DNA of 34,404 bases from a virus. The notes beneath the pieces are model-generated. The model did not search any database. It was not told the origin of the DNA and saw only the letters and a list, made by a program, of their open reading frames with translations. Positions 9,655 through 34,039 of the stretch are shown piece after piece (the first letter of the stretch is position 1; each line of letters opens with the position of its first letter). A program made the translations under genes and the position numbers. The stretch lies in IMG/VR virus record IMGVR_UViG_3300042868_000837, positions 1-34,404 of that record. One strand, 5' to 3'.

Positions 9655-9750
9655 ATGCCTGCAAAGCCGTTTAAGCCCTGCTCCAAGTGCCCGTCGCCTG
9701 CTAAGTGCAAGGCCGCTGGTAAGTGTCTTATGGGTGGAAAGAAAAAGTAA
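9655..9750 (+). CDS. 31-residue four-cysteine micro-protein
   Basis: A tiny frame starts at ATG 9655 with a good ribosome site (TAGGAG at 9643-9648) and ends in TAATG overlap with the next gene. The product contains CSKCPSPAKCKAAGKC, with four cysteines in a C-x2-C-x5-C-x4-C pattern, set among lysines, and could bind zinc. Short proteins of this pattern recur in phages, from memory, but have no known role. The ribosome site and the exact fit in the gap support it. Confidence 0.72.
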   Translation: MPAKPFKPCSKCPSPAKCKAAGKCLMGGKKK

Positions 9751-11284: not shown

Positions 11285-11292
11285 GGTGCAGC

Positions 11293-13969: not shown

Positions 13970-13981
13970 CACGAGAAAAAT

Positions 13982-14486: not shown

Positions 14487-14507
14487 TAAGAAGCTAGGAG
14501 ATAAGTC

Positions 14508-16568: not shown

Positions 16569-16569
16569 C

Positions 16570-17217: not shown

Positions 17218-17429
17218 GGGCTATTCTTGAGGGTTGGAAGACGCGACTGCTGGCGTTCTGTGTGGCCTTTCTCGGGATCGTAGAAGCGGTTGATCCGACG
17301 CTTATCACAAGTGCATTCGGGCTTGACCAGCGCGGCAACGCGGTCCTTCTTATCGCTATCGCGGTTGCTATCTTCATCCTACGCCAGATCACCGCTACCC
17401 CAGCACCCCCACTTGTGAGGAAGAAGTGA
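17214..17429 (+). CDS. Holin-like small membrane protein 1
   Basis: A 71-residue protein starting at ATG 17214 in ATGA overlap with the endolysin stop. It has two hydrophobic segments (LLAFCVAFLGIVEAV and NAVLLIAIAVAIFIL), separated by a short turn with aspartates, and a basic C-terminus (RKK). This layout and the gene position directly after the endolysin are typical of a class II-type holin that opens the inner membrane at lysis. Family identity not established. Confidence 0.72.
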   Translation: MRAILEGWKTRLLAFCVAFLGIVEAVDPTLITSAFGLDQRGNAVLLIAIAVAIFILRQITATPAPPLVRKK

Positions 17430-17680
17430 TGGAATGCCTGTTCAATCCAGTCGGATGTGCCGAGGTTGCGGTCGGTCGGGTATCGACCGAGACATGGATT
17501 ATTGCCGCGCTTTTCCTAGGGCTTGTGCTCGGCGCGACGTTCCGCTGGGGTGCAGTAGCCCTCGCCTCCTTCTTTGCTTTCTTGTTCCTTCGGCGCGGTA
17601 GCGACGAGAACCATTCAGAAGTTTCTGGTAAGGACGCGTTGCCGTCTGTGACTATCAAGGGGCGCAAGCGTGGAAGCTAA
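17429..17680 (+). CDS. Small membrane protein 2 (lysis cassette)
   Basis: An 83-residue protein from ATG 17429, overlapping the previous stop (TGATG), with GAGGAAG upstream; a GTG three bases earlier is a weaker alternative. The region TWIIAALFLGLVLGATF plus VALASFFAFLFL is hydrophobic, so one long or two short spans are expected. N- and C-terminal parts are soluble, with two cysteines in the first 11 residues. A holin or spanin-like function is possible from context; I see no lipobox of an outer-membrane spanin. Confidence 0.62.
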   Translation: MECLFNPVGCAEVAVGRVSTETWIIAALFLGLVLGATFRWGAVALASFFAFLFLRRGSDENHSEVSGKDALPSVTIKGRKRGS

Positions 17681-17933
17681 GTTTACGGACGAACAACTTC
17701 AGCAGCTTCGTAACGTGCTTCGCGAGCAATTTGATCGGGCGGGGTTGCGGCTTGATGAACCAGAGCACGTAGACGACGCCCGCGAGGACTTCCGTTTCCT
17801 CCGTAAAATTCGTAAATTTAATGATGGCATTGCCGCTAGGATCGGCACGTTTGTTATCATTAGTGGACTTGGCCTACTTGGATGGGCTATAACGACGGCA
17901 GCTAATGTGTGGAAGTCCGCACCAACACCGTAA
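17670..17933 (+). CDS. Small membrane protein 3 (holin-like)
   Basis: An 87-residue protein starting at GTG 17670, inside the end of the preceding gene, with AAGGGG upstream. It is a charged helical protein (TDEQLQQLRNVLREQFDRAG, EHVDDAREDFRFLRKIRKF) with one membrane span near the C-terminus (IGTFVIISGLGLLGWAI). The layout resembles single-span holin or antiholin-like accessory proteins in other phage lysis cassettes. Exact role uncertain. Confidence 0.62.
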   Translation: MEAKFTDEQLQQLRNVLREQFDRAGLRLDEPEHVDDAREDFRFLRKIRKFNDGIAARIGTFVIISGLGLLGWAITTAANVWKSAPTP

Positions 17934-17944
17934 GGAGACGTATA

Positions 17945-18409
17945 GTGCTGAACGAAAAGTTGAAAGTTACGGGCGATGTTTCGTTCGTACTGCGTGATGA
18001 AACCGGTAAGATTATCGAAACTAAAGAAATTCATAATCTCGTAGTGACGACCGGTCTTAACTTTATCGCCGCTCGCCTGAAAGGCGCTACACCGGCGGCG
18101 ACCGAAATGACGCACATGGCTGTCGGCACTGGCACTGTCGCTGCTGCTCTTGGAAATACTACCCTTGGGACTGAGCTTGCACGCGTAGCGCTGACCACCC
18201 CCGGCGGCACTGTTGGTGCTAGTCCCGCTACTATCCAGTACGCGTGTACCTTCGGCGCTGGAAGCCCTTCGGGCACAAATGCGCTCACGGAAGCTGGCGT
18301 GTTTAGTGCCTCGTCCGCTGGTACCATGATGTGCCGCACGGTCTTCTCCGCGATCAACAAAGCCCCCGGTGATAGCCTGACTATCACGTGGACGATTACC
18401 ATCAGCTAA
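17945..18409 (+). CDS. Tail-associated structural protein
   Basis: A 154-residue protein. I choose GTG 17945 as start because AAGGAGACG precedes it at good distance; an open frame goes back to 17909. The first part is β-rich (VTGDVSFVLRDETGKIIETK), followed by a segment VGTGTVAAALGNTTLGTELA and an ending SAINKAPGDSLTITWTITIS. I recall similar proteins in podophages annotated as tail or virion structural proteins. It returns the gene order from lysis to tail, just before the glycine-rich adhesin gene. Function otherwise unknown. Confidence 0.7.
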   Translation: MLNEKLKVTGDVSFVLRDETGKIIETKEIHNLVVTTGLNFIAARLKGATPAATEMTHMAVGTGTVAAALGNTTLGTELARVALTTPGGTVGASPATIQYACTFGAGSPSGTNALTEAGVFSASSAGTMMCRTVFSAINKAPGDSLTITWTITIS

Positions 18410-18419
18410 GGAACCTTAA

Positions 18420-19640
18420 ATGGGCACCGTACAGGTTAAGAACAACGCATACAGCACTCTGGCAAGTGGCATTAACAATGTCGCTACCTCGCTGACCGTT
18501 GCCACTGGACACGGTGCCCGTTTCCCGGCTGTCACCACAGCCTCTGGCAACTATTTTTACGCAACGCTGATCGACACTTCTAACAATCTGGAAGTGGTTA
18601 AGGTCACTAACGTGTCTACGGATACGTTCACCATCGTCCGCGCTCAAGACGGCACTACGGCACGGGCTTACTCGGCTGCTGATCGTATTGAGTTGCGTGT
18701 TACCGCAGCGCTCCTTAACGAACTTCCCGCCCGGCCCATCCAAACCGGCGACATCGCGGACGATGCGATTACAGCGGATAAGCTTGCAGACACGGCTGTC
18801 ACCGCTGGCTCCTACGGCGGCGCTGGTAAGTACACCGCGATCACAGTAGACGCGCAGGGTCGGTTGACGGCAGCAAGTCAGGGTTCGCTCGGTGTTCTCT
18901 CGGCGACGACTTATGATGTAGCAGCTAGTCCTGTCTCATGGACCAAGCCCGCTACCGGTACGTTTATCCGCGTCCAGATGTGGGGCGGTGGCGGCTCAGG
19001 CGGTCGGTATCAGTCAGGTGATGCTTGCGGTGGCGGCGGCGGCGGTGGGTACTTCGACGTTAGTTTCCCACTTTCCTCGATTGCCGCAACTGCTACGATC
19101 ACTATCGGTGCCGGTGGCGCAGCTAAGACCGTAACCGGTAATGGTAATAACGGCGGCAACACTACGTTCGTCCACGGGTCTACGACTTACACGGCTTATG
19201 CTGGCGGCGGTGGCGCTCGCGGTTCCGCCGGTACTGTCCCCGGCGGTGGCGGCGGCGGTATGCTTGGCGCTGGTTCCGTAACCTCTGACACTGTGACCGC
19301 CGCAGGCAACATGGGCGGCGGCGTTGGTGGTTCAGCGGGCTTAAAAGGCGGGTATCCGACTGTTATATTCGCTGGCGCTGGCGGTGGTGGCGGCACTACC
19401 TCTGGTGTTGGCGGCGCGGGGGGCGATGCGTTCTGGGGCGGCGCTGGCGGTGGCGGTGGCACGGAGACCGGCGCTACAGCCGCTGGGGGTACAAGCTTCT
19501 TTGGCGGCGCTGGTGGTGCTGGTAATACAGGTACTGCGGCTGCTACTGCTGGTTCTGTCCCCGGTGGGGGTGGCGGTGGGTCTGAAAGCGGTAACTCTGG
19601 CGCTGGTGGCGCTGGTCGCTGCATTATTACCATTTGGTAA
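18420..19640 (+). CDS. Glycine-rich tail adhesin-like protein
   Basis: A 406-residue protein. The N-terminal 95 residues form a β-rich domain (NNVATSLTVATGHGARFPAV), then a spacer with IADDAITADKLADTAVTAGS, a pattern usual before fibre receptor regions. From about residue 188 (MWGGGGSGGRY) to the end it is strongly glycine-rich in runs of 3-7, like the Gly_rich_2 type and the polyglycine-II helix tips of T4-like adhesins. Thus it may bind host surface. It ends GAGGAGRCIITIW. The high GC repetitive DNA is natural for this composition. ATG 18420 has AAGGAA nearby. Confidence 0.8.
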   Translation: MGTVQVKNNAYSTLASGINNVATSLTVATGHGARFPAVTTASGNYFYATLIDTSNNLEVVKVTNVSTDTFTIVRAQDGTTARAYSAADRIELRVTAALLNELPARPIQTGDIADDAITADKLADTAVTAGSYGGAGKYTAITVDAQGRLTAASQGSLGVLSATTYDVAASPVSWTKPATGTFIRVQMWGGGGSGGRYQSGDACGGGGGGGYFDVSFPLSSIAATATITIGAGGAAKTVTGNGNNGGNTTFVHGSTTYTAYAGGGGARGSAGTVPGGGGGGMLGAGSVTSDTVTAAGNMGGGVGGSAGLKGGYPTVIFAGAGGGGGTTSGVGGAGGDAFWGGAGGGGGTETGATAAGGTSFFGGAGGAGNTGTAAATAGSVPGGGGGGSESGNSGAGGAGRCIITIW

Positions 19641-19649
19641 GGGACACAG

Positions 19650-22061
19650 ATGCCCGCAGTTAAAATTGAGAAGTTTCTTGGCCTTGCACCCAAGGTAGCA
19701 CCGCAGTTGCTGCCTAACGTTGCTGCGCAAGAAGCAAGCAATGTGCGGCTCTTTTCCGGTGATCTACTTCCGTATCGCTTGCCGAAAGAAGTCGGAACCA
19801 CTTATCGCAGCGGTGAGGTCAAGACGATCTACCCATTGCGTAACCCTACGACCGACGCTATCGAATGGTTGTCTTGGCCGGGTGACATCGACGTAGCCGT
19901 GGCTACTTCGCTTAACGACGAAGAGCAGCGCATCTACTATACTGGCGACGGTGTCCCTAAGGTAACGAACTACGACAAGGCCATCGCTGGCGGTGGTCCA
20001 TACCCGGCTGGGTCTTTCGATCTTGGGCTTTCACTTCCTACGGCTAAACCATCTGCGTCTGCCGCGACTTTCTCGCAACTGACTGTTTCGTCTTACGCGC
20101 GGGATAGCGGTAGTATCGCTACGCTTACGTTCGGTTCAGCGCACGGTCTCAAGTCTGGTGCTGTGGTTACAGTATCCGGGTTTAACGACACTTCACCGGA
20201 CACTACGCCGTTTAACCTAACTAATACCGTCATTACGGTGACAAGTAGCACGACCTTTACCTACTATAACGTAGGTCCTGTTGTATCGACTACTTCAACC
20301 GACACGGACGGTCGCGTCAATTTGGCTGGTAACACAATCCAGCGCAACTACGTGTACACGTGGTACACCCCGTGGGGTGAGGAGAGCATTCCTTCTGAAC
20401 CTACGGCTGACATCTTTTGTAAAGACGGTCAGGTTGTAACCGTTAGTAATTTGCCTAACTCTGCTCCCGCAGGCAGTAACTATATCCGGGCGATCCGACT
20501 TTACAGGACGGTTACGACCACGACTGGCTCCGGCTATCTCCGGCTCCGCACCCTTTGGTTCCCTCGCACCATCGCGTCTGCAAGCCGCGCAACCAACGTA
20601 GCAACACTGACGTTCACTGAGCCTCATAACCTTGAGGTGGACGACTACTTCAAGGTGGCTGCTGTAGCTTTTGGTGGTTCCGCAGACACCAGCTTCAATG
20701 GTTCCGATAGGATTGTTCTGTCCGTTTCTACGGACGGTAAGTCGCTGACCTACGCAAGCACCGGCACCGACAAGGCTACGACTGCTTGCTCCGCTGGTAC
20801 GGTCTATTACGATGTGGCGGAACCCGGCGGTACGACCCATACCTACTACGAGAGCACGACCTTCACGGATAACTATAACGTCTACGGGCTTGTGTTCCCG
20901 CTGACTTCGCTCGACTACGACCCGCCTGATCCAGATATGACCGGGCTTACCCGCGCCCATAATAACATCCTCGCTGGCTTCGTAGGCAATGAACTCTGCC
21001 TGTCTGAACCAAGCAAGCCGTGGGCGTGGCCGATTATCTACCGGCAGATTTTTGATGCACCAATCGTAGCCATTGCGGCGGTGTCCGAAACCATCTTGGT
21101 TATGACGGAGAAGTACCCGTATATTGTGCAGGGTAACGAACCGGCTAATATGGGGCAGACCCGTGTCGATGCGCCTTACCCCTGTGTGTCTAAGCGCGGG
21201 GTTGTCAATATGGGGTATGGTGCCATCTATCCCACACATGGTGGGCTAGCGATCTGGGGCGGCGCGTCCGGTCTCGACATCATTACCAAAGTTGTCCATG
21301 ACTGGGACACTTGGGAACTCATGGGTCAGCCTAGTGAGCTTGTGTCCGAGTTCTTCTCCGACAAGTACTTCGGGTCTTACACTTCCGGTTCGATCATTTT
21401 TGAGCAGGATAGCGAGACTGGCGGCAACCTGACCACCTCTACTACAAAATTTACCGCAGCCTACTACGACGCTCGCGACGACGCGTTCTATTACGTTCCC
21501 GGCGTAGACGGTACCGTTTACCAGTGGGACCACCCGGAGCAGCCGTTTACTGAGATGTCGTGGAAGTCGAAGCTGATCGACACGCCGCTATGGATCAACC
21601 TTGGCGCGGCACGAGTGGTCGCGGACTACGCGGTTGACGTATCCGCTGTCGAGGCAGTCGTTGCCTATAACGCGCAAGTGGTAGCGCATAACACTGCTGT
21701 TTGGGCTTATGAGGACACTGATAACGATACCATCGCGCTAAATACGATCAACGGGCCACATGATTACGTCGATCCCATCACGCTCGCGAACACGGTTGTT
21801 CTAGGATCGTTGAACACCACGCTCGTTAACGGCGATCTTCTTACGCAGTACGAGCTTCCGCTCCCTGCTGGTAGTAATCCGGTAACGTTCTCCCTTTGGG
21901 TCGATCAGGAACTTGTCGTTAGTACGACCCTCACAGACAGCGGCGTGTTCCGCTTACCTACCGGTTACCGTTTCGATAGGTTTGAAGTCGCCGTCTCTGG
22001 TGCGACCCGCGTTCAGGCTATCCATCTGGGTGAGACACCCACGCAGTTGAGGACTTCGTAA
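19650..22061 (+). CDS. Tail nozzle-like protein (compare T7 gp12)
   Basis: An 803-residue protein, large and β-rich, opening MPAVKIEKFLGLAPKVAPQL, as in podophage nozzle proteins. Position after the fibre genes and before ejection genes fits. Two similar β inserts stand out: residues about 145-225 (SYARDSGSIATLTFGSAHGL) and 308-388 (IASASRATNVATLTFTEPHN), each with a VATLTF-type or IATLTF-type strand, a HGL/HNL turn and a later TFTY/SLTY strand. These look like duplicated domains set into the nozzle scaffold. The last half carries propeller-like strands (YGAIYPTHGGLAIWGGASGL). Function: channel for DNA exit. ATG 19650 follows AAGGGAC. Confidence 0.8.
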   Translation: MPAVKIEKFLGLAPKVAPQLLPNVAAQEASNVRLFSGDLLPYRLPKEVGTTYRSGEVKTIYPLRNPTTDAIEWLSWPGDIDVAVATSLNDEEQRIYYTGDGVPKVTNYDKAIAGGGPYPAGSFDLGLSLPTAKPSASAATFSQLTVSSYARDSGSIATLTFGSAHGLKSGAVVTVSGFNDTSPDTTPFNLTNTVITVTSSTTFTYYNVGPVVSTTSTDTDGRVNLAGNTIQRNYVYTWYTPWGEESIPSEPTADIFCKDGQVVTVSNLPNSAPAGSNYIRAIRLYRTVTTTTGSGYLRLRTLWFPRTIASASRATNVATLTFTEPHNLEVDDYFKVAAVAFGGSADTSFNGSDRIVLSVSTDGKSLTYASTGTDKATTACSAGTVYYDVAEPGGTTHTYYESTTFTDNYNVYGLVFPLTSLDYDPPDPDMTGLTRAHNNILAGFVGNELCLSEPSKPWAWPIIYRQIFDAPIVAIAAVSETILVMTEKYPYIVQGNEPANMGQTRVDAPYPCVSKRGVVNMGYGAIYPTHGGLAIWGGASGLDIITKVVHDWDTWELMGQPSELVSEFFSDKYFGSYTSGSIIFEQDSETGGNLTTSTTKFTAAYYDARDDAFYYVPGVDGTVYQWDHPEQPFTEMSWKSKLIDTPLWINLGAARVVADYAVDVSAVEAVVAYNAQVVAHNTAVWAYEDTDNDTIALNTINGPHDYVDPITLANTVVLGSLNTTLVNGDLLTQYELPLPAGSNPVTFSLWVDQELVVSTTLTDSGVFRLPTGYRFDRFEVAVSGATRVQAIHLGETPTQLRTS

Positions 22062-22411
22062 TGGCATTCTCAGCGCTACCTCCGGTGCCCACTGCTGATA
22101 ACAGAGAGTGGCTCTATCGCTTTAACAACGCGATGAAGCAGAATATGGAGCTTCTCACCGGGCAACGCGGGCAGTCAGGTAGCCGTGCAATTCTCGCTGG
22201 GCAAGTTAGCCTTAACCCTGTGCCTGAGCTAAACATGCGGCAGGTCACTGCAACGGGCGTTGGTATTGCGGTTAACTCTGCTGCGTCCACTGCGGTTGCA
22301 ACACAGGCTGATTATGTTAAACTAATCGTAGACGTACAGACGCTTGCGAACGATGTTGCTGCCATCCGTGCGACACTGAATGGCCTCATAGAACAGCTAA
22401 AGGGTGTATAA
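22061..22411 (+). CDS. Small tail protein with C-terminal helix
   Basis: A 116-residue protein that overlaps the nozzle gene stop (TAATG). It begins MAFSALPPVPTADNREWLYR, then a helical NNAMKQNMELLTGQ, and ends in a heptad-like helix (DVQTLANDVAAIRATLNGLI) that may trimerise. Similar small proteins lie after nozzle genes in other podophages. Probably a virion component. No motif suggests enzyme activity. Confidence 0.7.
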   Translation: MAFSALPPVPTADNREWLYRFNNAMKQNMELLTGQRGQSGSRAILAGQVSLNPVPELNMRQVTATGVGIAVNSAASTAVATQADYVKLIVDVQTLANDVAAIRATLNGLIEQLKGV

Positions 22412-22412
22412 G

Positions 22413-23396
22413 ATGGCCGAAGGTAGTAAAAGGTTCTCCGGTGGACTTCGCGAGGGCGGCGCTTCGATGCGTGGTAACCTCGTTAGTGGTGGGATGGACC
22501 TCTCTCCTGCCCTTGCTCGGCTTGTTAATACCCCCTCCATGCTGATGACATCCACTGGTGTTGGTCAGGGTTATGTGGCTGGTCAGGGTGCTGCGGCTTC
22601 CGCACCCGCCCCACTTGTCGGTCAGGAGAATGTTCCGTCCTTCGGCGGTGGCTTCGGTATGCAGCCTAACTTCTCTGCTCCGCGCCTGTCGTTCCGCTCG
22701 CAGGGCTTTGCCGATGGCGGCTTAGTCGATCCTAACCAGATGCAGATGCAGATGCAGGGGCAGATGCAGGGTCAGATGCCTGATCCGGCAATGAACCTCC
22801 CTCAGGCTCCGCCGCTTGACCCTCAGCAGCTTCAGGGCGAAGTGCAGCGCATGGCGACCGCTAACCCGGAGGTGCTACAGCAGCTTCAGGAAGTCATCAT
22901 GCAGGCGCTTCAGTCTGGTCAGTTGACGATGGAGCAGCTTGATATGGCTGTCCAGTTGGCTAGGGCCGCTGCTCAGAACCCGCAGCTTTACCCACGCCTT
23001 CGCACTCTTGCCATCCAGCGCGGCCTCGCGACTGAGCAGGACCTGCCTCAGCAGTACGATCAGGGTATTGTGTTCGCGTTCCTCCTTGCTGGTGAAGCAG
23101 TTCAGCGCATGGGGGCGCAGGCGCAGCCGCAGCCGCAGGGCCAGATGATGGCCGATGGTGGTTCCGTTGTGGTTCCGGGGTCCTACGCCGCAGGCGGTGG
23201 CGTTACCGCAGGCTCTCCTACCGGGGACAAGACCGGTCGCGCTGACGATATTCCGATCCGCGTTTCGGGTGGTGAGTACGTTATCCCGCACCATGTCGTC
23301 ATGGCAAAGGGCACGGAGTTCTTTGACAAGTTGCTCGCGAAGTATGATAACAATCCGAACAACGACCCCGAAGATGACAGCGAGGACATGGATTGA
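22413..23396 (+). CDS. Virion protein with GEYVIP-type C-terminal motif
   Basis: A 327-residue protein starting at ATG 22413 after the AGGG of the upstream gene end; the frame can be opened at GTG 22404 but ATG is preferred. It is rich in Gln, Met, Pro and Gly, with a low-complexity QMQMQMQGQMQGQMPDP stretch. A helical middle (VLQQLQEVIMQALQSGQLTM) follows. Near the end lies RADDIPIRVSGGEYVIPHHV, a motif I recall from other podophage virion proteins in the ejection or tail module. The acidic tail DPEDDSEDMD closes it. It precedes the GNAT-like gene by TTGA overlap. Likely an internal or tail-related structural protein. Confidence 0.7.
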   Translation: MAEGSKRFSGGLREGGASMRGNLVSGGMDLSPALARLVNTPSMLMTSTGVGQGYVAGQGAAASAPAPLVGQENVPSFGGGFGMQPNFSAPRLSFRSQGFADGGLVDPNQMQMQMQGQMQGQMPDPAMNLPQAPPLDPQQLQGEVQRMATANPEVLQQLQEVIMQALQSGQLTMEQLDMAVQLARAAAQNPQLYPRLRTLAIQRGLATEQDLPQQYDQGIVFAFLLAGEAVQRMGAQAQPQPQGQMMADGGSVVVPGSYAAGGGVTAGSPTGDKTGRADDIPIRVSGGEYVIPHHVVMAKGTEFFDKLLAKYDNNPNNDPEDDSEDMD

Positions 23397-23857
23397 CCGA
23401 ACACCTCGAACCACTTCTCCTAGGCACACCGCAGCTACTTGAGAGCTACTGGCCGCAGGTGGAGCCTCTGTTTGAGAAGTGCGTCCGACGAGCGTCACAC
23501 GGTGAGTATGCCGTGCAGGATATTAAAGCCCTTGCCTTCGCTGGCCGTGCGTTCGTGTTTATCCTTACAAATGACAAGCATGACTTTACAGTTGACCGGC
23601 GTGTAACCCTCGCGCTCGCACTTGAAATTGTAAATTATCCTAGGCTTCCTGCGCTAAATATCTTGGCTGTAGGTGGTTCTGGCCTTAAGATGGCGTACAC
23701 AAAGTACTGGGGTATGCTGCGCGGTTGGGCCTACATGAGCGGTGCTCGTGCTATCGAAGGCTGGGTCGGACCCGGCATGAAGCGCACCACCGAAAGCATG
23801 GGGTTCAAGTCCGTGTACACGCACATGCGATACGATCTGGAGCAAGGCGATGCCTGA
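23393..23857 (+). CDS. GNAT acetyltransferase-like protein in the ejection module (compare T7 gp13)
   Basis: A 154-residue protein starting at TTG 23393 (TTGA overlap; GAGGA upstream). It opens EHLEPLLLGTPQLLESYWPQ, then has an AFVFILTNDK strand, NILAVGGSGL, and an ending helix-strand GPGMKRTTESMGFKSVYTHM. This order matches the degenerate GNAT fold known from T7 gp13-type proteins, which are needed for virion assembly and not known to acetylate. The typical acetyl-CoA loop (Q/RxxGxG/A) is not evident here, so enzymatic activity is doubtful. Position between virion proteins supports an assembly role. Confidence 0.75.
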   Translation: MTEHLEPLLLGTPQLLESYWPQVEPLFEKCVRRASHGEYAVQDIKALAFAGRAFVFILTNDKHDFTVDRRVTLALALEIVNYPRLPALNILAVGGSGLKMAYTKYWGMLRGWAYMSGARAIEGWVGPGMKRTTESMGFKSVYTHMRYDLEQGDA

Positions 23858-24977
23858 GATTTGTTTTGACGGAATTGCCTGTCAACCGTCGCTTGACATT
23901 GCAGCGCGGCATGAAGATGAATTTAAGGGCGCCGGTGGCAACGCTCTCACCGCTATTGCGGGTATCGCAGTCTCCATCGCGGTCCCCTTCCTTGCCCCCA
24001 CAGTTGCTGGCGCTATTTTCGGCGCTTCGGCTATGGCCGGTCTTAGCGGAGCGATCCTTGCGGGTGGTGTCGGTGCGGCACTGGGTGCCGCTGGTGCGTA
24101 TCTGACGGGCAACGACCCTATACTTGGCGCTCTTACGGGCGGCCTCGGCGCTGGTGCTGTTCAGGGCTTCGGCGCTTTCGGTGCAGTAACAGGGGGCGCT
24201 GGTGGTACGTCCTTCCTTGCACCGGGTGGTGTCGGCACTGGGCTTGTAAACTTTGGTCAGACTGTCCCCGGTGCTGTTGCTCCCGGTGTCGCTGCCCCCG
24301 GTGCTGTTAGTGCAGGGCTGTCTGCTCCTAGCTACACTGCTGCTACCCTCGGTGCCCCCGCTGGTGTCGCTGCTCCCGCTGCTGGTGGCTTCATGGGCCT
24401 CGGTGCTGCGGAGACTGCCGCTCTCGGTAACGCTGCCATTATGGCTGCGCCTCAGGCAATTGGTATGCTCGGTGCTGAGTTCCTTCCACCAAGTGATCAG
24501 GCGTTGGCTACTGAGGCAGCACTTAAGCAACAGTACGACCAGCAGCAGGACCTCTATACGCAGGCTATGAACACCGCGCAGAACATCAGCCCCGAACTGA
24601 TGGCGCAGAACCTCGCTGGTCAGGCTCAGCTTCAGTCGGCTCAGGTCATCGCCGAAGGCGATAGCGCTGGTACTCAGGGTGGTTACGATCCGGCTCGTGA
24701 AGAGTCTCGCCAGCGCAAGCAGGCAGTCGCTGGTTCCACTATGCGTGGTACTGGTTATATGCAGGGTATGCTCGCTGGCACCGAAGCTCAGGCAGATGCT
24801 ACTGTGCGGGCTGCTGGTCTTCGCCCCGGCTATGCTGATTACCTCACGGCTCTTTCCAGCTTCGGTACGGATGCTGAGCGCAAACGGCGGGCTGCTGAAC
24901 TTGCTGGCTTTGCTGAACCGTTCGCTGGTGCGTTTGTCAAAGCTAAGCCTACTGATCAGGTTCAGGCCAGTACATAA
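23850..24977 (+). CDS. Ala/Gly-rich hydrophobic ejection protein (compare T7 gp14)
   Basis: A 375-residue protein that starts at ATG 23850 inside the end of the GNAT-like gene. After a short N-terminus with two cysteines (CFDGIACQ), residues about 30-200 are Gly/Ala-rich and hydrophobic (LTAIAGIAVSIAVPFLAPTV; GAILAGGVGAALGAAGAYL), suited to forming a membrane channel after ejection. The rest is helical and Gln/Ala-rich (QYDQQQDLYTQAMNTAQNIS; YDPAREESRQRKQAVAGST). Gene order and composition are those of the first ejection protein of T7-type systems. The role is from context; no sequence identity to gp14 was computed. Confidence 0.75.
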   Translation: MPEICFDGIACQPSLDIAARHEDEFKGAGGNALTAIAGIAVSIAVPFLAPTVAGAIFGASAMAGLSGAILAGGVGAALGAAGAYLTGNDPILGALTGGLGAGAVQGFGAFGAVTGGAGGTSFLAPGGVGTGLVNFGQTVPGAVAPGVAAPGAVSAGLSAPSYTAATLGAPAGVAAPAAGGFMGLGAAETAALGNAAIMAAPQAIGMLGAEFLPPSDQALATEAALKQQYDQQQDLYTQAMNTAQNISPELMAQNLAGQAQLQSAQVIAEGDSAGTQGGYDPAREESRQRKQAVAGSTMRGTGYMQGMLAGTEAQADATVRAAGLRPGYADYLTALSSFGTDAERKRRAAELAGFAEPFAGAFVKAKPTDQVQAST

Positions 24978-24988
24978 GGACAACACCG

Positions 24989-26695
24989 ATGGCGCTTATT
25001 GACACTCTCGGGGCTGCTCAGGCTGGTGCTGCAAATGCGTCAGCGAATTACCTCACCCGGCTTAGGAACGCACAGCAAGCTAATCAGCTTGCCGCTAACG
25101 CAGTGCAGTCGGATATGGACGCGGCTAATCAGGCTGCGCGGTACAAGGCTGGTCTCCGGCCTGCATACACTCCCGCTGCCCCTATGAACTTGAAGACCGA
25201 CATTCGCACTCCCGGTGGTGATGTCACGCAGAAAGACATCCAGTACTATCCGGTAAGGGACGGTCAGGTCTCCCTGCCCCTCTACGACGCTGCGCCTGTG
25301 CCTGCGGGTCTTACTCCTCCCTCCGACAGCCCATACTACGGCAGGACACCAATAGTGCCCTCCGGCGGCACTCCTGCTGCTCCCGCTGCTGGTGTAGTTC
25401 CTGCGGATAAAATCCCTATCGGGTTTGCGGATTACTACCCTAACGTTGATGTTTTCAACCCCGGTCCAGATGCATCTCCACTGGCAGCGGGAGCCGCTGG
25501 TGTGGGTAACGCCCTCTATAATGCACCCGGCGACTTTAAGAACGTAGTAGAAAACGTCTTTAAGAAGCCGTTTGTTGACGCCTATAACTGGGCAACGATG
25601 AAGCCTAGCGAGCTTAATGAGCTTTACTATAGGCCGGGGGCTGTTCCTGCTGCTGCGGAACCTGCTGCGGAGGCTGCTCCTACTGCTGTAGAACCTGCTG
25701 ACCTTACACCTGCTGAGCGTAGCGGGTACGAGACTGCCGTAGGTCTTACTCCTCCGCTGGAGGGCGGCGAACCCGCCGATATGTCGCCTGTCTCGCTACT
25801 GACTAATCCGCAGGCACGGGCTAAGCTCTCAGACGCTGACCTCGACTACCGCAACACCGGTATAATGGACAACCGTAACCTTATTATTAATATGTTTAAT
25901 AGGGAAGTCGGCAACTTGCAGGCTGACGCTGCACGTAACGATCAGCTTCGTGTGCAGCAGTACGATGCTCTGATGCAGCAGGCGCAGTCTGCAACCACCG
26001 CTGGTAATACCGGCTACGCCCAAAGTCTTATCAACAAGGCGGATGCTCTGCTTCAGGAAGCTAGTGACGCTGTGACTACCCAGCGCCAGATGATGGATAC
26101 CTTGCAGGCGAACGCACAGGGGCTTCTGAACAGCAACGAAACGGAACTGCTTTCTAATCAGGCAGTGATCGCGGAACGTGAGTTCACCGTAGGCAACAAC
26201 CCGTCTCGTATGCTGTCCATGCTGGAGGCTTACGGCTTTGGTGGTGTCAACCTTGAAGGTATGCCTAACGGTAAGCTCCGCATGGCCCTCCCCACCGAAG
26301 GCGGTGGTATTACGTACTTCACGGACCAGAGCGGTAAGCCTGCTGAGATGACTAAGCAGGAGTTCGTTAGCTTCTTTATGGGTACGTTGTCGGAAGATAT
26401 CCGTGCTAGACAGATTGCGGACCAAGCGGCTTCGGCTGCTAGCAATCTGGAGTTCCAGCGGGAGTTGGAGAAGATATCGTTCCAGAGCTACGCGGACATT
26501 CAGAAAGCACTTGCTGATAAAGGTGTCGGCGAACAGACGTACGATACAAAAGTTGGCGATGACGGCTCTATAACCTATACACCTAAGGACCCGCTGAGCG
26601 GCCTCCCGATTGTCTTAGTTCAACCGGAAGAAGGTGCTAATGGTATGACGCAGTACAGGCCGCAGTTCATCAACCCGGCTGCTGGTCTCAGGTAA
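24989..26695 (+). CDS. Helical ejection protein (compare T7 gp15)
   Basis: A 568-residue protein. The N-terminus is helical (GAAQAGAANASANYLTRLRN) with Ala/Asn/Gln. Residues about 95-250 are Pro/Ala-rich linker. From about 275 to 395 long helices follow (DALMQQAQSATTAGNTGYAQ, then INKADALLQEASDAVTTQRQ), consistent with a coiled internal virion protein. The C-terminal part contains SYADIQKALADKGVGEQT and a β-like end. It is placed between the hydrophobic protein and the giant protein, like the T7 gp14-gp15-gp16 order. No enzymatic motif. ATG 24989 follows AAGGA. Confidence 0.72.
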   Translation: MALIDTLGAAQAGAANASANYLTRLRNAQQANQLAANAVQSDMDAANQAARYKAGLRPAYTPAAPMNLKTDIRTPGGDVTQKDIQYYPVRDGQVSLPLYDAAPVPAGLTPPSDSPYYGRTPIVPSGGTPAAPAAGVVPADKIPIGFADYYPNVDVFNPGPDASPLAAGAAGVGNALYNAPGDFKNVVENVFKKPFVDAYNWATMKPSELNELYYRPGAVPAAAEPAAEAAPTAVEPADLTPAERSGYETAVGLTPPLEGGEPADMSPVSLLTNPQARAKLSDADLDYRNTGIMDNRNLIINMFNREVGNLQADAARNDQLRVQQYDALMQQAQSATTAGNTGYAQSLINKADALLQEASDAVTTQRQMMDTLQANAQGLLNSNETELLSNQAVIAEREFTVGNNPSRMLSMLEAYGFGGVNLEGMPNGKLRMALPTEGGGITYFTDQSGKPAEMTKQEFVSFFMGTLSEDIRARQIADQAASAASNLEFQRELEKISFQSYADIQKALADKGVGEQTYDTKVGDDGSITYTPKDPLSGLPIVLVQPEEGANGMTQYRPQFINPAAGLR

Positions 26696-26704: not shown

Positions 26705-29700
26705 ATGGCGCAGTTCGACATTAATTTTACTCCGTCCTTCGTTCCCTCCGGCCCTACTCCTGATCCACTGGCTGTAGCCAAGTCGCGCTATGATCAGATG
26801 ATCGGTGGGCTGCGCCCACCGCAGCAGGCTCAGCCCCGTGGTACGCAAGGCCCGCTCTACAGCGGGTCTAAGAATGCGTACTTCATCGGTGGTCGAGAGA
26901 TCAGTGCTCGTGACGAGGCCGGTCTGCTTGAGGCTGCTACTACGGCTGACTTCTCTGTCCCGTACGAAGCCCCCGCTGGCGACTGGGCGCAGGTGGATAC
27001 CGGCCAGTTTGGGTCTATGATCCAGAAGATCGCTGACCCCGACCTTATGACCCGTATGGGTAAGTCGTTTGAGAGTGGCCTCGCTAGTTCTGGCGAACTG
27101 CTTGGCGCTACCGCTCGCTTCGCTGGACTGGAAGAACCCGGCAAGGCTCTCATGGACGCCAGCCAGCGTCGTCAGCAGGAACTCTCGCCGTACAGTGTCG
27201 GGTTCACCGACATCGGTAAGGACCCCACGGTTGATGTGGTGGACTGGATCGCTAGCACTATTGGTCAGCTTGGTCCGTCTATCATCGAAACACTCGCTGC
27301 CACGGCTATTGGTGCCGCCGCTGGCGCTTCGGTCGGTGGTCCCGCTGCTCCTGCTTCTGCCACGGCTGGCGCTATCGCTGGCTTCTTCGGTAAAGATGCT
27401 ATTAAGGATGCGCTCAAAGCTGCCGTAGTAACCTACGAGAAGCAGGCTCTTAAGACCGCCGGTAAGGAAGCGGCTGAAGGTGTTGCGCGTCAGGCCGCTA
27501 TCAAGGCTGCTCCCAAGGCTGAGGTTGTTGCCGCGTTGCGGGCGACACCAGAAGGTGTGGCCGCTCTCAAGACCCTGCGCTATGCAGGTGCCTTCACTGG
27601 TGGTCTTATTGCTAACGTCGGTAGCTCTTACCTCACTGGTATTGGTGATGTTACCGCTGAGCAGCTTTCGTCTGGCCTATCCCCTGATCAGCTTAACCGG
27701 ATGGGTATTGCCGCAGCGGCTGTGCCGTATGCGGCTCTTGAGTCCCTGCCTGAAGCTACCCTATTTGGGCGCATTGCCAGTGAAGCCTTTGGTAAGACTA
27801 AGAACCTTGCTAAGACAAAGACTTGGGTGGACCGCGCACGATCCATTATCGCTAAGGGTGGCCAGCAGGCTGCGCTTGAAGGTGCCACTGAAGTCGGTCA
27901 GGAAGGCTTTGTCCTCGCTGCCAACCCGCTGACGAACTGGAACGACCCGGAGATCGCTAACCGGATTATTAACTCGTTTGCCGCTGGTGCCCTGATGGGC
28001 GGCGCTCTCGGTGGTGTCAGCGCCTTTGCCCCCACTGACCTGCTCAATCCCAGTCGCGATATTAACAAGGATACGGAACAGGGTCAGCAGACGCAGAAGG
28101 GTGAAGAACAGCCGACACAGGGTGAGTTGTTCCCCGGTGCTCCGATCCAGCAGGCACCTATGGGGATGCAGGGTCCCGGCTTTGCTGAACCTGTTGCTGC
28201 TCCGGCTAGCCAGCGTCCCGTGCTTGAGCGTCAGCTTGAACAGGTTCGCCGTGCCATCCGTGATGGATTGGCTGTCACCAAGCGCCTCCCCGACGGCACC
28301 GAGGTCAAGACCAGTGGTGCAACGGAGCCGCAACTTAATGCCATGCGGCAGGCTCAGACTGAACTGGAGATGCAGCTTCAGCGTATGGGTATCGCGGGTG
28401 ACCGCACTCAGGCTGCACAGCCGAACGACCTCATGCTTAATGCGTCTCTGTTCCCAGAGGTGCCAGACTTTGCGCAAGGTCCAACGTCGCCGTTCCCCAA
28501 CCCTCAGGGCAGATTGAAGATTGGGCCTCCGGCCAACTTCACTGTCTCGCCTGAGGGTGGGGTAGAGATTTCTGGTCGTGATCGGTCTGACTTCATTGTC
28601 TCGCCTAAGGGTGAGGCGCAGCTTTTTGGCTTCAATCCTGCTGCTCCTACTGCTCCTACTGTTCCCGACGCCGAGTTCTCGGCTCCGCCTTCGCGCCTTG
28701 CACTCCCGGCTCCTAGGCGTGATGCTGCGCCGCCCAACCGCCCTGACGAAGAGTTCGGCCCATCGAACCCTGCCCCCGCCGATCCCCGCTTCAACGACCC
28801 TAACATCTCACGCGGTGTTATGGCGCTTCGCGCGCGTATGCAGGCCGCAGATCAGGGCGCGCTCGCAGAGCAGGCGCAGCTCAACCGGCAGGCGCAGCTC
28901 AAGCGCGGCGTCTCGCAGCCCGACCTAAGTGGGATTCCATCCCTTGGCCCGCTCAACGACGGCCTGCCGCCCCCTAGCCCTGCCGTTAAACTAGATATCA
29001 CTGCCGCTGACGGCAAGAATGAAATTGCAAACAACGGCAAGCGTAAAGTCCTGTCATGGTTTAACGGGCTTAGCAAAACGCAGCAGGATAAGGTTCTTGG
29101 TGACGAACGCTACGATAATACAATAGATGAGTTTATAAAAGACGTTCGCAAAGCAAAGAGCTACACCAATCTTGTAAAGTACCTTCAGTCACTGGTGCCC
29201 GGTGCGCCGACTATCGCGTCGGTCAAGGTGAGTAAAACTGCTGCTCCTGCTCCTGCTGCATCCACTACGCCAAAGCCCTCCGAGAAAAAGACGGGGGGAG
29301 CGCCTAAAAACGCTGAGACGTTTCCCGACCAGAAGCAGTCTGATAAAAGTGGTACCACAGTAAAGAGCGAACCTAAACCAGCAGCAGAGCCTGCCGCAGC
29401 AAAGCCTGCCGCAGCAGAACCCGCAGCCGGTGGTAGTGAGTTCGTTCTAACGACGTTCCTTGACGACCTCAATGCTCTGATTGATGCCAAGGACCCGATC
29501 TCCGACAATACGGAACGCACCGAAACGCGGAAATCGCTTAGCGAGCGGGCCACCGACTTGATGCGGTACGACCCGAATTTGCTTACGCGTGAACTGACTA
29601 GCGATAGTGAAAAAAATAAGCGCTACGTTGGTTCGTTCTATAAAAGGACCCTTACTGGTCTTGTTGTACAGATCGACAAAGATGGCTATTTCACCCCCGA

Positions 29701-32700
29701 CACAGCTTTCGCTGCTGATGTCGCGGCACTAACAGAAGAGCAACGTGACATCGCAGAGACGATGCCGGAGACATTGCGGAAAGCCGTAGCGGCATTTGAC
29801 GGCAAAGCCCCCCGAGGAGGGAGCCACTTCCGTGTAGACGGCACGCCCATCGCTAACCCGATGGAAGTCGGTAGGGTAAAACTGCTGCTCAACACCATCA
29901 AGTCGAAGCTGCGCATTGCACCTAAGACCCACGTGTTCCGCAACCTGAAAGAACTTAAGAGTTCAAACCCCACGCTGTACAAGGCGGCTAAGGCTGCGCG
30001 TACTGAGGGTGACTTCGACACGGTCAATGCCGCTGGTTACTCCTTTGGCGACACCGTGATCCTGTTCTCGGATAACATCCAGACTGAGCAGCAGCTTAGG
30101 TTCGTCATGGCCCACGAGACCATCGGACACTTCGGGCTTCGCTCCATCACGGATGGGGCGTCCGTCAACAAACTTCTTAACAGTCTATACGACAACGACT
30201 TCCGGGTTCGTACCGCTACTGATGCGTACATGACGCGGATGGGTATCCCAAAGCTGGAAGCTATCGAAGAAGTTCTGGCCGACAACGCTGCTTATCTCGA
30301 CACCAGCCTGCTGGCACGCATCACTACCTTTATCAAGAACGCGCTGAACAAGGTCGGTGTCACCTTTGGTGATGAGTTTGCACGGGAGATCGTGTCTCAG
30401 CTTCGCAAGTACGTGCGCTATGGAGAACTTAACGGCACCCCGGCTAGCGCCACGCAGCTTGCAGAGAACATGATCCGGCTGGAGGAGCAGGCTCGCGTCG
30501 GTCGCTACTCTGCAACTAACACGTTCGCCAATGTGGCGCAGGGTTTCAACTGGCTCGCCAGTCTCTCTAACGGTGTCTTCACCGGTAGGCAGGACCTTCT
30601 GGCCGAAACGCGGCGTTTCCTTAGCGATAACAAGACCAACACCAAGTCGCTGTTTAAGGATGTGCTTGACGCATTCTCCACGCCGCAGGGCCTTGGTGTT
30701 CAGAACTATGGCACGCGGGAGATCAATAGCATCTTCACCGACATGAGCCATCTGCGTAGCATGGTCATCAGCAGGCTCGCGGAAGTTGCGCCTGACTTGC
30801 ACAAGACCGGCAAGGATGATCCTGAACTTCTTCAGGCCGAAGAGATGTTCATCCATCGGATGCTGGAACTCTATATGAACTTCAAGCCGGGGCCTGAACA
30901 GAAGGACCCGGACCTTGTTTACACTGACAGGTTCGACCCGGATGGCACCCCGGTTAGGAACGTTGAAGCCATCGCTGCGTACAAGAAGCGCATCCTAGCT
31001 ACGCCTGAGATGTTTAAGAACGGTGTCAATTTCCGCGATAAGACGCCCCCGTTCAAAGCCACCGTCGCCGCTGATAGCCCTGCCTATAAGTTCTATTCGC
31101 AGATGGTGGACACGCTGGTCGAACAGCAAATCCTTCGCCTCCAGAGCGTCATCCAAGGTGGTAAGGTCAACGAGAACTTGGCGTTCTCTTACCTGCGTAA
31201 CGCCGAGGCGAACGACGCACAGATCGCGATCATCGAAGAGGCTCGCCGTATCTACACCAGTTTGGCGGTGAAGAACGCCAAGGTTGACAAGGACAGCGGG
31301 CAGATCAAGCTCGACGACGAAGCTTCGGCCAAAGCTAACGTCTTCGCGAACCAAGTTGCCCGCGTTATGTCTAAGGAGTTTGGTGATCAGAAGCTGAAGG
31401 ACTGGCTGGAGGGCAACCCGAAGGAGGGCAGCGAGCAGTTCCGTACGGCTGAGTTTGACGACTTTATTAAGAAGCTGCCGACGCTAAACAAGCTTAAGCT
31501 GGGTAGCCTGACTGAGGTCAACAGCCTCATTGTAAACTCGGTGTTCAACGCAACAACCGCCCGCGATGCACAGCTATACGCGAAGCAGTCCATCCTCCGG
31601 CACTACACCCCACTCGACCGCGCTGGTGAGTTTGCGGTTAAGGTTGCTGTTGTAGACGGGGAAGGTAATACGATCTCCCTTGGCAGGGAGTCTATGGCCC
31701 ATCTCCCGTACTATGAGTTTGACACCAAGGCTGAAGCCGACCGTGTTATGGAAGAACTAAACAGGGCTTTTGCAACTCAGTTTACGGAAACAGGTCTAAA
31801 GGATATTGATGGAAAGCCAGTAAAGAGCGATGCTAAGCTGGTTGCATTCTCTGGTGCGGTCTCTAAGACTGCTGAAATGCGTATAACGGTTAACCCCAAT
31901 ACGCTGCTCAAGGCCATTGAGAACCTTGGCATTAGGCTTCCTGCTGAGGCTGTCGAAAAACTTGTAACTAGAACTACAAACCAGAACGCTGCCGCTCGTC
32001 GTAACCTTGAGCGTAACGTTAACCCCGGCTTCCGCCGCGACATCCGTAGCGTTCAGGCTGAGTTCTCAGAGTTCATCGCTAGCATTGTGGCTAACAACAT
32101 AAACCGTCCGAAAGTGGATGACCTATTCAGGCCGCACAACCAGTGGATGTGGACGGGTAGCCGGGATCGTCTTGACCGTCTTAAGGCTAGGATAGAAGCA
32201 GCGCCAACGGCTGACGAGCGCCGTGACCGCGAGCGGGAGTACGCTGAGTACGCCACACAGTTCCGCTACTCTACCAACACCAGTACGGCTGAGGGCCTCA
32301 GTAGCGTTGAGATCAACGGTACGAAGTACAAGCTCATGGGTCGCGGGAATAAGTACCGTGAAATGGCCATACGCATGGTTGACACGCTCAACCGCAGCGG
32401 CGGCGAACTTGTTGAAGTCAGTGAGGCCATCTTCGGTAAGGGTTTCGGTGCCCAACTCCGCACGTTCTCAGTGCTCGCTCAACTCGGCGGCTCCTTCGCC
32501 TCTGGCTTGCTGAACGTCATCGGCCTCTCCACCAACACGTGGTCCTATCTGGCATACACGAACAAGCAGAACGGCTTCGGCGGTGGGTACGGCTCCGCTG
32601 CTTCCGCACTGGCGATCAACAAGGCCCTTGCGGACACTAGCTTCCGCAAGCTCAATGATATCAAGTACCTAAAGGAACTCGAACCGGGTAAGCACAACCT

Positions 32701-34039
32701 AACCCGCGATGAAATTAACTTCCTTATCAAGGTGGCTGAAGACGGCGAACTTGCGGCGTCCCAGTCGCAGGCCCTTATGGGTGCTACCCGTGGTCGTAAC
32801 CCGACTACTCAGAAGCTCATGGACGGCTGGATGTCGTTCTTCAACTACACTGAACAACTTACCCGCCGCACCACAGCACTTGCCACGTTCCGTCTTGAGT
32901 ACCAGAGGCAGCTTGCCCTCTATGGTGGTAGGCCAACAGCGGACCAGAAGAGCGCCGCGCTTGGTCGGGCTACTAAGTTTGCTGAGGCGGCTGTCGGCTA
33001 CACGCAGGGTCGCTATGGTCTGATGGATCGTCCTGAGCTTGGGCGCACTGGTCTGCTCCAGTACCCCTTCCAGTACAAGCAGTTCGTTATCAACACCGTC
33101 GAACTCCTTGCCAACATGGACACCCGTGGGCGCATCCAGTACCTAGCTATGATGCTGCTCCTCGCTGGCGTTTCGGGTCTGCCGTTCGCTGAAGACATCG
33201 GCGACTTGCTCGACACACTGCTGTCGTTCTTCGGTATCCCCCGTGCCAACGTGGAGAAGGAGATGCTGATGCTCTACGACAGCATTCTCCCCGGCTCGGC
33301 TGAGATTATTAACAAGGGTATCCTCGACCAACTTCTTGGCGTGTCGATTAGCTCTCGTGTCGGTATGGGTAACATCTTGCCACTTACGTCGGCTGGTGTG
33401 CCGGGTACTGACATCACACGTGAACTCATGGACTTCGCTGGCCCGGTGGTCGGTATGTTGGCTGGCACCACCTCGTTCGTGGATGGTATCCTGTCCATGC
33501 CGCTGGAAGCAGCGGGTATCAAGCCCGGTGAAACTTCTTTGCGGGATGTGTTCCGCAACTCCCCGATCACTGCACTCCGGTCGGTTGGTGACGCTTGGGC
33601 CTACCTCGACACGGGTGCCATCGTCTCCGCCGATGGTCGCATGGTTGCTGACAACGTGTCTGGGTTTACGATCTTTGCACGCTTGCTTGGGTTCTACCCG
33701 GCTGAGGCTTCCCGTCAGAACAACATGGTCCGTCTCGGCAAGCAGAGCGATGCATACCGCAACGACATTGCCGCTAAGTTCCGGCTGGATTACATCCGCG
33801 CCGGGATGTCGAACAACATGAAGGGCGACCGCGAGGCGATGGCTCGTGTCATTGACGAAGTCGAGCGGTGGAACAAAGCCGCCAAGGGTACCGGCCTTGA
33901 GATTAGCAACTTTGTTAAGAACTCTCGTAAGGCGCTCAAGGACGCACAGATGAGCACAGCGGAACGGTTCCTCAAGTCCACGGCAAAAGCCAATCGCCCC
34001 GTCATGGAGGAACTGGCTGATGCTATGGGTATCGAATAG
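26705..34039 (+). CDS. Giant polyvalent ejection protein with zincin-like motif and PLxRFG-type C-terminal region
   Basis: At 2444 residues this is the largest gene. Regions: Gly/Ala-rich hydrophobic segments at about 176-237 (IETLAATAIGAAAGASVGGP) and 292-320; helical Gln-rich part to about 570; a Pro/Ala/Lys linker at about 842-912; then a zincin-like domain with MAHETIGHFGLRSI (H1137, E1138, H1142) and EAIEEVLADNAA (about E1185-A1196) as further ligand. The spacing is HExxxH, one residue longer than classical HExxH, but I recall it from phage polyvalent proteins. At 1634-1642 YTPLDRAGE stands where PLxRFG-type proteins have PLxRFG. A hydrophobic stretch lies at about 2142-2179. By place and size it should be the T7 gp16 counterpart, entering the host at infection. 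No transglycosylase motif seen. Confidence 0.85.
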   Translation: MAQFDINFTPSFVPSGPTPDPLAVAKSRYDQMIGGLRPPQQAQPRGTQGPLYSGSKNAYFIGGREISARDEAGLLEAATTADFSVPYEAPAGDWAQVDTGQFGSMIQKIADPDLMTRMGKSFESGLASSGELLGATARFAGLEEPGKALMDASQRRQQELSPYSVGFTDIGKDPTVDVVDWIASTIGQLGPSIIETLAATAIGAAAGASVGGPAAPASATAGAIAGFFGKDAIKDALKAAVVTYEKQALKTAGKEAAEGVARQAAIKAAPKAEVVAALRATPEGVAALKTLRYAGAFTGGLIANVGSSYLTGIGDVTAEQLSSGLSPDQLNRMGIAAAAVPYAALESLPEATLFGRIASEAFGKTKNLAKTKTWVDRARSIIAKGGQQAALEGATEVGQEGFVLAANPLTNWNDPEIANRIINSFAAGALMGGALGGVSAFAPTDLLNPSRDINKDTEQGQQTQKGEEQPTQGELFPGAPIQQAPMGMQGPGFAEPVAAPASQRPVLERQLEQVRRAIRDGLAVTKRLPDGTEVKTSGATEPQLNAMRQAQTELEMQLQRMGIAGDRTQAAQPNDLMLNASLFPEVPDFAQGPTSPFPNPQGRLKIGPPANFTVSPEGGVEISGRDRSDFIVSPKGEAQLFGFNPAAPTAPTVPDAEFSAPPSRLALPAPRRDAAPPNRPDEEFGPSNPAPADPRFNDPNISRGVMALRARMQAADQGALAEQAQLNRQAQLKRGVSQPDLSGIPSLGPLNDGLPPPSPAVKLDITAADGKNEIANNGKRKVLSWFNGLSKTQQDKVLGDERYDNTIDEFIKDVRKAKSYTNLVKYLQSLVPGAPTIASVKVSKTAAPAPAASTTPKPSEKKTGGAPKNAETFPDQKQSDKSGTTVKSEPKPAAEPAAAKPAAAEPAAGGSEFVLTTFLDDLNALIDAKDPISDNTERTETRKSLSERATDLMRYDPNLLTRELTSDSEKNKRYVGSFYKRTLTGLVVQIDKDGYFTPDTAFAADVAALTEEQRDIAETMPETLRKAVAAFDGKAPRGGSHFRVDGTPIANPMEVGRVKLLLNTIKSKLRIAPKTHVFRNLKELKSSNPTLYKAAKAARTEGDFDTVNAAGYSFGDTVILFSDNIQTEQQLRFVMAHETIGHFGLRSITDGASVNKLLNSLYDNDFRVRTATDAYMTRMGIPKLEAIEEVLADNAAYLDTSLLARITTFIKNALNKVGVTFGDEFAREIVSQLRKYVRYGELNGTPASATQLAENMIRLEEQARVGRYSATNTFANVAQGFNWLASLSNGVFTGRQDLLAETRRFLSDNKTNTKSLFKDVLDAFSTPQGLGVQNYGTREINSIFTDMSHLRSMVISRLAEVAPDLHKTGKDDPELLQAEEMFIHRMLELYMNFKPGPEQKDPDLVYTDRFDPDGTPVRNVEAIAAYKKRILATPEMFKNGVNFRDKTPPFKATVAADSPAYKFYSQMVDTLVEQQILRLQSVIQGGKVNENLAFSYLRNAEANDAQIAIIEEARRIYTSLAVKNAKVDKDSGQIKLDDEASAKANVFANQVARVMSKEFGDQKLKDWLEGNPKEGSEQFRTAEFDDFIKKLPTLNKLKLGSLTEVNSLIVNSVFNATTARDAQLYAKQSILRHYTPLDRAGEFAVKVAVVDGEGNTISLGRESMAHLPYYEFDTKAEADRVMEELNRAFATQFTETGLKDIDGKPVKSDAKLVAFSGAVSKTAEMRITVNPNTLLKAIENLGIRLPAEAVEKLVTRTTNQNAAARRNLERNVNPGFRRDIRSVQAEFSEFIASIVANNINRPKVDDLFRPHNQWMWTGSRDRLDRLKARIEAAPTADERRDREREYAEYATQFRYSTNTSTAEGLSSVEINGTKYKLMGRGNKYREMAIRMVDTLNRSGGELVEVSEAIFGKGFGAQLRTFSVLAQLGGSFASGLLNVIGLSTNTWSYLAYTNKQNGFGGGYGSAASALAINKALADTSFRKLNDIKYLKELEPGKHNLTRDEINFLIKVAEDGELAASQSQALMGATRGRNPTTQKLMDGWMSFFNYTEQLTRRTTALATFRLEYQRQLALYGGRPTADQKSAALGRATKFAEAAVGYTQGRYGLMDRPELGRTGLLQYPFQYKQFVINTVELLANMDTRGRIQYLAMMLLLAGVSGLPFAEDIGDLLDTLLSFFGIPRANVEKEMLMLYDSILPGSAEIINKGILDQLLGVSISSRVGMGNILPLTSAGVPGTDITRELMDFAGPVVGMLAGTTSFVDGILSMPLEAAGIKPGETSLRDVFRNSPITALRSVGDAWAYLDTGAIVSADGRMVADNVSGFTIFARLLGFYPAEASRQNNMVRLGKQSDAYRNDIAAKFRLDYIRAGMSNNMKGDREAMARVIDEVERWNKAAKGTGLEISNFVKNSRKALKDAQMSTAERFLKSTAKANRPVMEELADAMGIE

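What the first reader, a model, noticed from the sequence alone, without database searches (positions are those of the whole stretch)
26705..34039. 2444-residue ejection protein carrying a peptidase-like domain
One chain joins hydrophobic channel-like segments, a long linker, a zincin-like site (HExxxH plus a downstream E-rich helix) and a PLxRFG-type C-terminus. If ejected like T7 gp16, it would bring a metallopeptidase into the host at the start of infection, either to process itself or to attack host proteins. The non-classical spacing makes the site unusual.
Basis: partly seen in the sequence, partly recalled or inferred. Interest (0 to 1): 0.75.

Follow-up and report, generated by a model that had tools for sequence, protein, structure and literature searches.

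The report
Giant phage ejection protein with metallopeptidase
A bacterial virus from the environment carries one very large protein, probably packed in its particle and injected into the host, that contains an intact zinc-peptidase domain; the domain belongs to a widespread type that was already described in 2017, so this is a well-supported new example of something known, and its target has never been shown.

Summary
In detail: window 26705-34039 (+) is one open frame of 2444 codons with HETIGH at residues 1137-1142 and EAIEEVLAD at 1185-1193. The site is real. E1189, which was not part of my search pattern, is invariant in 63 of 63 relatives, and 17 of 17 homologues fetched by their C-terminus alone keep both halves. 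AlphaFold2 gives a confident core with the zincin order (helix, three strands, HExxxH helix, Glu helix), and PDB matches are dominated by zincin peptidases. The domain is the best-conserved stretch of the protein.

It is not unusual. HExxxH spacing occurs in at least 120 viral stretches, and Iyer et al. 2017 described it explicitly as a set of zincin domains in phage 'polyvalent proteins'. The literal PLxRFG motif is absent, although the C-terminus matches NCBIfam's PLxRFG-protein tail model (E 1.8e-40). The gene sits last in a podophage late block, like T7 gp16, but no sequence link to gp16 was found. Most likely it is a virion ejection protein whose peptidase processes its own chain, perhaps at the fast-evolving Pro/Ala-rich linker. 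Catalysis and substrate are inferred. New member of a known kind.

The parts
26705..34039 (+). whole gene, 2444 aa giant protein (P0001)
   Evidence: full-length homologues of 2457-2914 aa
26738..28144 (+). conserved N-terminal region, residues 12-480, with a modest hydrophobic segment at 192-211; no family hit
   Evidence: 27-34% identity to full-length homologues, block identity 0.22-0.39 apart from 0.12 at 241-300, hydropathy
28145..29818 (+). fast-evolving, gappy linker, residues 481-1038, most low-complexity at 841-910 (Pro/Ala/Lys/Glu)
   Evidence: block identity 0.08-0.16, gaps up to 47%; composition
29867..30424 (+). zincin-like metallopeptidase domain, residues about 1055-1240
   Evidence: AlphaFold2 core residues 1055-1198 mostly pLDDT above 90; zincin peptidases at the top of PDB matches; best-conserved block, identity 0.56 at 1081-1140
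30113..30130 (+). HETIGH, residues 1137-1142: predicted zinc ligands H1137 and H1142, general base E1138
   Evidence: lies in predicted helix 1128-1148
30257..30283 (+). EAIEEVLAD, residues 1185-1193, with E1189 as predicted third zinc ligand
   Evidence: E1189 invariant in 63/63, not selected for; in predicted helix 1183-1197
32441..33988 (+). PLxRFG-protein tail region (NF032893 tail-700), residues 1913-2428, helical, with hydrophobic segments 1921-1941 and 2144-2165
   Evidence: searches (E 1.8e-40, 139 bits against cut-off 100; phrog_11358, E 3.6e-28), model mean pLDDT 81.5 for residues 1640-2444
1587..26695 (+). context: podophage late genes upstream (terminase 1587-2978, portal/head-tail 3312-5366, major head protein 6660-7568, structural proteins 9993-11284, tail fibre 18420-19640, internal virion protein family 19650-22061)
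   Evidence: genes 19650, 22061, 22404 and 23393 recur near the homologous giant gene in other contigs

Best explanation
A giant virion ejection protein of a podophage, of the phage 'polyvalent protein' type, with an intact zincin metallopeptidase domain of the HExxxH set. Zinc would be held by H1137, H1142 and E1189, with E1138 as general base. The chain is made late, packed in the capsid and ejected with the DNA, its helical C-terminal region acting at or beyond the inner membrane. The peptidase most likely cuts its own chain, in the virion or just after ejection, and the fast-evolving Pro/Ala-rich linker just before the domain is the likeliest place to be cut, freeing the N-terminal part from the peptidase/C-terminal part. 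Shown here by computation: the ORF, the domain, its conserved site, its fold class and its gene context. Inferred: zinc binding, catalysis, packaging, ejection and self-cleavage.
For: E1189 and the HExxxH residues are invariant. The fold model has the zincin order described by Iyer et al.: N-terminal helix, three strands, HExxxH helix, inserted helices, Glu helix. The first 36 PDB rows of the structural re-alignment are almost all zincin-fold domains: anthrax-lethal-factor type (M34) Z 6.8, MATCAP 5.8, PPEP-1 5.6, PprI 5.2. The best named viral model matches are large polyvalent proteins. A profile comparison with the zincin domain of the N4 virion RNA polymerase aligns HExxxH on HExxH and Glu on Glu, P 2.7e-4. 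The domain is the most conserved block while the linker is the least. Some relatives carry ART-PolyVal and LPD3 domains beside it. Iyer et al. cite a processed phage P1 DdrB and propose autoprocessing.
Against: No curated Pfam, NCBIfam or PHROG model hits this domain above cut-off; Pfam M48 is below cut-off. Foldseek itself finds no PDB match below E 0.05, and Z values under 8 are only moderate. Zinc geometry could not be measured because no coordinates were available. N4 virion RNA polymerase, which also has a zincin domain, is packaged uncut, so self-cleavage is not general. No sequence link to T7 gp16 was found. Presence in the virion is untested.
Confidence: 0.6

Rival explanations
1. The peptidase is an injected effector that cuts one or more host proteins at the start of infection.
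For: The active site is under strong conservation; some related proteins also carry other enzymatic polyvalent domains such as ART; Iyer et al. list host attack as an option; the fold matches include proteases that act on specific protein targets.
Against: The domain sits in the middle of a 2444-residue chain in the best-conserved block, more like a fixed part of the machine than a rapidly changing effector; no target is known.
Confidence: 0.2
2. The zincin domain has a structural or regulatory role (packaging, refolding, holding another domain in check) and little or no proteolysis.
For: In N4 the zincin-containing C-terminal region is needed for encapsidation and inhibits the polymerase, and the protein is packaged uncut.
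Against: All three ligands and the general base are invariant across very divergent relatives, which a purely structural domain would not need.
Confidence: 0.17
3. The HExxxH is a chance motif in a helical structural protein.
For: No curated Pfam family above cut-off.
Against: Invariance, predicted zincin fold, 120 stretches with the same flanks and an unselected downstream Glu.
Confidence: 0.02

Closest known systems
HEXXXH set of zincin-like MPTase domains in phage polyvalent proteins (Iyer et al. 2017, PMC5512222)
   Same: HExxxH instead of HExxH, Glu on the next conserved helix, three-stranded core, embedded in giant phage proteins with ART/LPD domains in some relatives
   Different: No other catalytic domain was recognised in this chain; long unconserved linker in front of the domain
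Escherichia phage N4 virion RNA polymerase gp50, C1 zincin domain
   Same: giant podophage ejection protein with a zincin domain before a large helical C-terminal part; HE motif and Glu align
   Different: N4 has canonical HELVH and an RNA polymerase domain; the C-terminal parts do not align significantly
PLxRFG domain-containing phage proteins (NCBIfam NF032893), e.g. those of F116-like Pseudomonas phages
   Same: shared C-terminal region of up to about 500 residues
   Different: the literal PLxRFG motif is missing here; the zincin-like sites seen in F116 and phage 8P are HExxH types (HELQH, HEMIH, HEMTH)
Dipeptidyl peptidase III, family M49 (HEXXGH plus EECRA or EECKA motif)
   Same: six-residue HEXXGH motif, followed by an EExxA motif whose second Glu binds zinc; the phage family also has a five-residue variant (HEMGH in phage Rollin), as M49 does (PMC5805324)
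   Different: no sequence or fold hit to M49 was found; much smaller domain; the likeness may be convergent
T7 gp16
   Same: very large last gene of the internal-virion-protein block; hydrophobic stretches towards both ends
   Different: no significant similarity; no transglycosylase hit in the N-terminus

Membership tests
HEXXXH zincin MPTase of polyvalent proteins | HExxxH motif in a helix | tested here: met
HEXXXH zincin MPTase of polyvalent proteins | conserved Glu on the following conserved helix as third zinc ligand | tested here: met
   E1189 invariant 63/63, in predicted helix 1183-1197
HEXXXH zincin MPTase of polyvalent proteins | zincin core: N-terminal helix, three strands, two C-terminal helices | tested here: met
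   secondary structure, and 71 matches
HEXXXH zincin MPTase of polyvalent proteins | zinc binding and peptidase activity | not testable with these tools
   needs protein; coordinates of the model were not available to measure the site
phage polyvalent protein | giant protein with several unrelated domains linked to phage structural genes | tested here: inconclusive
   some relatives carry ART-PolyVal, LPD3 and the gene lies in the late block, but only one catalytic domain was found in this chain
PLxRFG domain-containing protein (NF032893) | score above curated cut-off | tested here: met
   139.1 bits against 100
PLxRFG domain-containing protein (NF032893) | literal PLxRFG motif | tested here: not met
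   regular-expression search
T7 gp16-type ejection protein | position as last large gene of the internal virion protein block | tested here: met
   T7 layout
T7 gp16-type ejection protein | sequence or profile similarity to gp16 | tested here: not met
   BLASTP E 0.23, hhalign probability 0.1%
T7 gp16-type ejection protein | presence in the virion and ejection into the host | not testable with these tools
   uncultured virus
peptidase family M49 (DPP III) | HEXXGH plus EExxA motif | tested here: met
   HETIGH and EEVLAD; M49 motifs from PMC5805324
peptidase family M49 (DPP III) | two-domain M49 fold and sequence similarity | tested here: inconclusive
   no M49 chain among listed sequence or fold matches, which does not exclude it

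The most novel reading that the evidence does not exclude
The HExxGH...EExxAD zincin is an active, injected peptidase of a widespread group of mostly uncultured podophages that cuts a defined host protein in the first minutes of infection, using a hexapeptide zinc site otherwise known as the hallmark of dipeptidyl peptidase III.
Probability: 0.15. Interest if true: 0.6.

Novelty: new member of a known kind. Interest (0 to 1): 0.27.

Why it matters
Zincin domains are, according to Iyer et al. 2017, the commonest domain of these giant injected phage and plasmid proteins, and I found no report of a shown substrate for the HExxxH kind. This family gives a clean, testable case: an intact site in a compact domain, with a fast-evolving linker just in front of it. 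Showing what it cuts would tell whether giant ejection proteins are processed like polyproteins or arrive as proteases aimed at the host.

Tried and rejected
Direct searches with the whole protein or the domain against viral contigs by exact peptides found nothing; alignments A1 and A2 were too divergent for that search. Pfam, PHROG, NCBIfam and PADLOC gave no accepted hit for the peptidase; Pfam M48 (E 0.03-0.04) and PADLOC CapP (E 0.01) match only around the HE helix. PDB sequence hits to alphaRep proteins and ribosomal S5 are composition or short-motif chance. The C-terminal model (mean pLDDT 81.5) has no convincing PDB match, best Z 4.8, mostly membrane transporters and long helices, so no fold is claimed for it. 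No Pfam domain of interest (for example LPD38) was found in the C-terminal relatives. M49 did not appear among fold matches, which does not exclude a link. The nearest cultured phages by the domain alone are only borderline, and a close uncultured relative found none. Chance origin of the motif was rejected on conservation. Two weak profile alignments of the C-terminus, to T7 gp16 1096-1116 and to N4 gp50 near its C-terminus, overlap on the same G..QY.F.YKQF segment but are not significant.

Full report
The observation. The open frame at 26705-34039 (+) is real, 2444 residues, one stop at its end. HETIGH lies at 1137-1142 and EAIEEVLAD at 1185-1193. In shuffles of the same composition HE...H occurs in 0.3% and with an E-rich element downstream in 0.13%. 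The literal PLxRFG motif is not there, but residues 1913-2428 match the NCBIfam model for the tail of PLxRFG proteins with 139 bits against a cut-off of 100 and phrog_11358 at E 3.6e-28. Hydrophobic stretches are modest: 192-211, 1921-1941, 2144-2165.

Context. The window is a 34,404-base virus record, probably a fragment: relatives of the same type lie on contigs of up to 58 kb. It is a podophage late region: terminase, portal/head-tail protein, major head protein, two structural proteins, an amidase and a GH108 lysozyme, tail fibre, a protein of the internal virion protein family phrog_511, then small genes, a 375-aa and a 568-aa gene and the giant gene. Genes 19650, 22061, 22404 and 23393 recur near the giant gene in relatives; the 375-aa and 568-aa genes were not found there. 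The position corresponds to T7 gp16, but neither BLASTP nor a profile comparison links the protein to gp16.

Relatives. Full-length homologues align over residues 12-480 and 1039-2444, and the peptidase region is the most similar part, 39-52% where it aligns on its own. To avoid selecting for the motif, a second set was fetched with a C-terminal query only: 17 of 17 with the domain covered keep HExxGHxG and the EAxEE element. In the 63-member alignment the invariant residues are A1136, H1137, E1138, G1141, H1142, G1144 and E1189; E1189 was not in the search pattern, and 44-61 residues separate it from the second His. Along the full length the 1081-1140 block has mean identity 0.56, the linker 0.08-0.16.

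Fold. AlphaFold2 on the domain with 63 sequences gives pLDDT above 90 over most of residues 1055-1198: helix, strand, two helices, two strands, helix 1128-1148 with HETIGH, two helices, helix 1183-1197 with E1189. This is the zincin order given by Iyer et al.. Foldseek against the PDB is weak (best E 0.05), but the first 36 rows of the structural re-alignment are almost entirely zincin peptidases or domains of the same fold: anthrax-lethal-factor type Z 6.8 (rmsd 5.5, 159 residues), MATCAP 5.8, PPEP-1 5.6, PprI 5.2. Against viral models the best named hits are large polyvalent proteins. The N4 virion RNA polymerase zincin domain aligns with HE on HE and Glu on Glu (P 2.7e-4, probability 42%).

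What is known. Iyer et al. [quoted passage not shown] They propose self-processing, in the virion or after injection, or attack on host proteins; they cite P1 DdrB as processed before packaging and N4 virion RNA polymerase as packaged uncut. A 2025 preprint of the N4 structure (PMC12633501) places the HExxH domain beside a large helical part without known fold, reports no evidence of degradation, and shows autoinhibition of the polymerase through the C-terminal region. The six-residue HEXXGH followed by an EExxA motif, second Glu binding zinc, is the hallmark of M49 dipeptidyl peptidase III, where five-residue variants also exist (PMC5805324); the phage family shows the same dimorphism (HEMGH in phage Rollin). 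Membership in M49 was not shown.

Verdict. What it took for unusual, the spacing, is the rule in a large and described family. The mechanism I judge most likely is self-processing of a giant ejection protein, about 0.6 for the whole statement; the zincin class itself is near certain (about 0.95), activity likely (about 0.75), and the substrate open. Interest is low to moderate: the open question (what do these peptidases cut?) is real, but this member does not change it.

Noticed in passing
L022 (also L044, L054, L089), between the HEAIGH and AVEEYMA helices: An insert of about 190 residues, starting with SRRGFLKGAGSVIGAVA (Tat-signal-like), splits the peptidase domain between its two zinc-binding helices; the close relative L115 lacks it.
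   Followed up: partly
L080, L090, L125, L049: Two HExxxH peptidase copies in one chain, the second of the form HELGGHxG.
   Followed up: no
L007 (Pseudomonas phage Rollin): A member of the same domain family with canonical HEMGH spacing, so five- and six-residue motifs coexist in one family.
   Followed up: partly
window 8768-9220 (+): An HNH endonuclease gene sits between the head genes and the next structural genes.
   Followed up: no
window 14508-17217 (+): Two neighbouring peptidoglycan hydrolases: a 686-aa amidase/PG-binding protein with a long extra C-terminal part, and a GH108 lysozyme.
   Followed up: no
window 33050-33112 (residues 2116-2136 of the giant protein): The G..QY.F.YKQF segment is where two independent, non-significant profile alignments to the C-terminal parts of T7 gp16 and N4 gp50 both land.
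   Followed up: no
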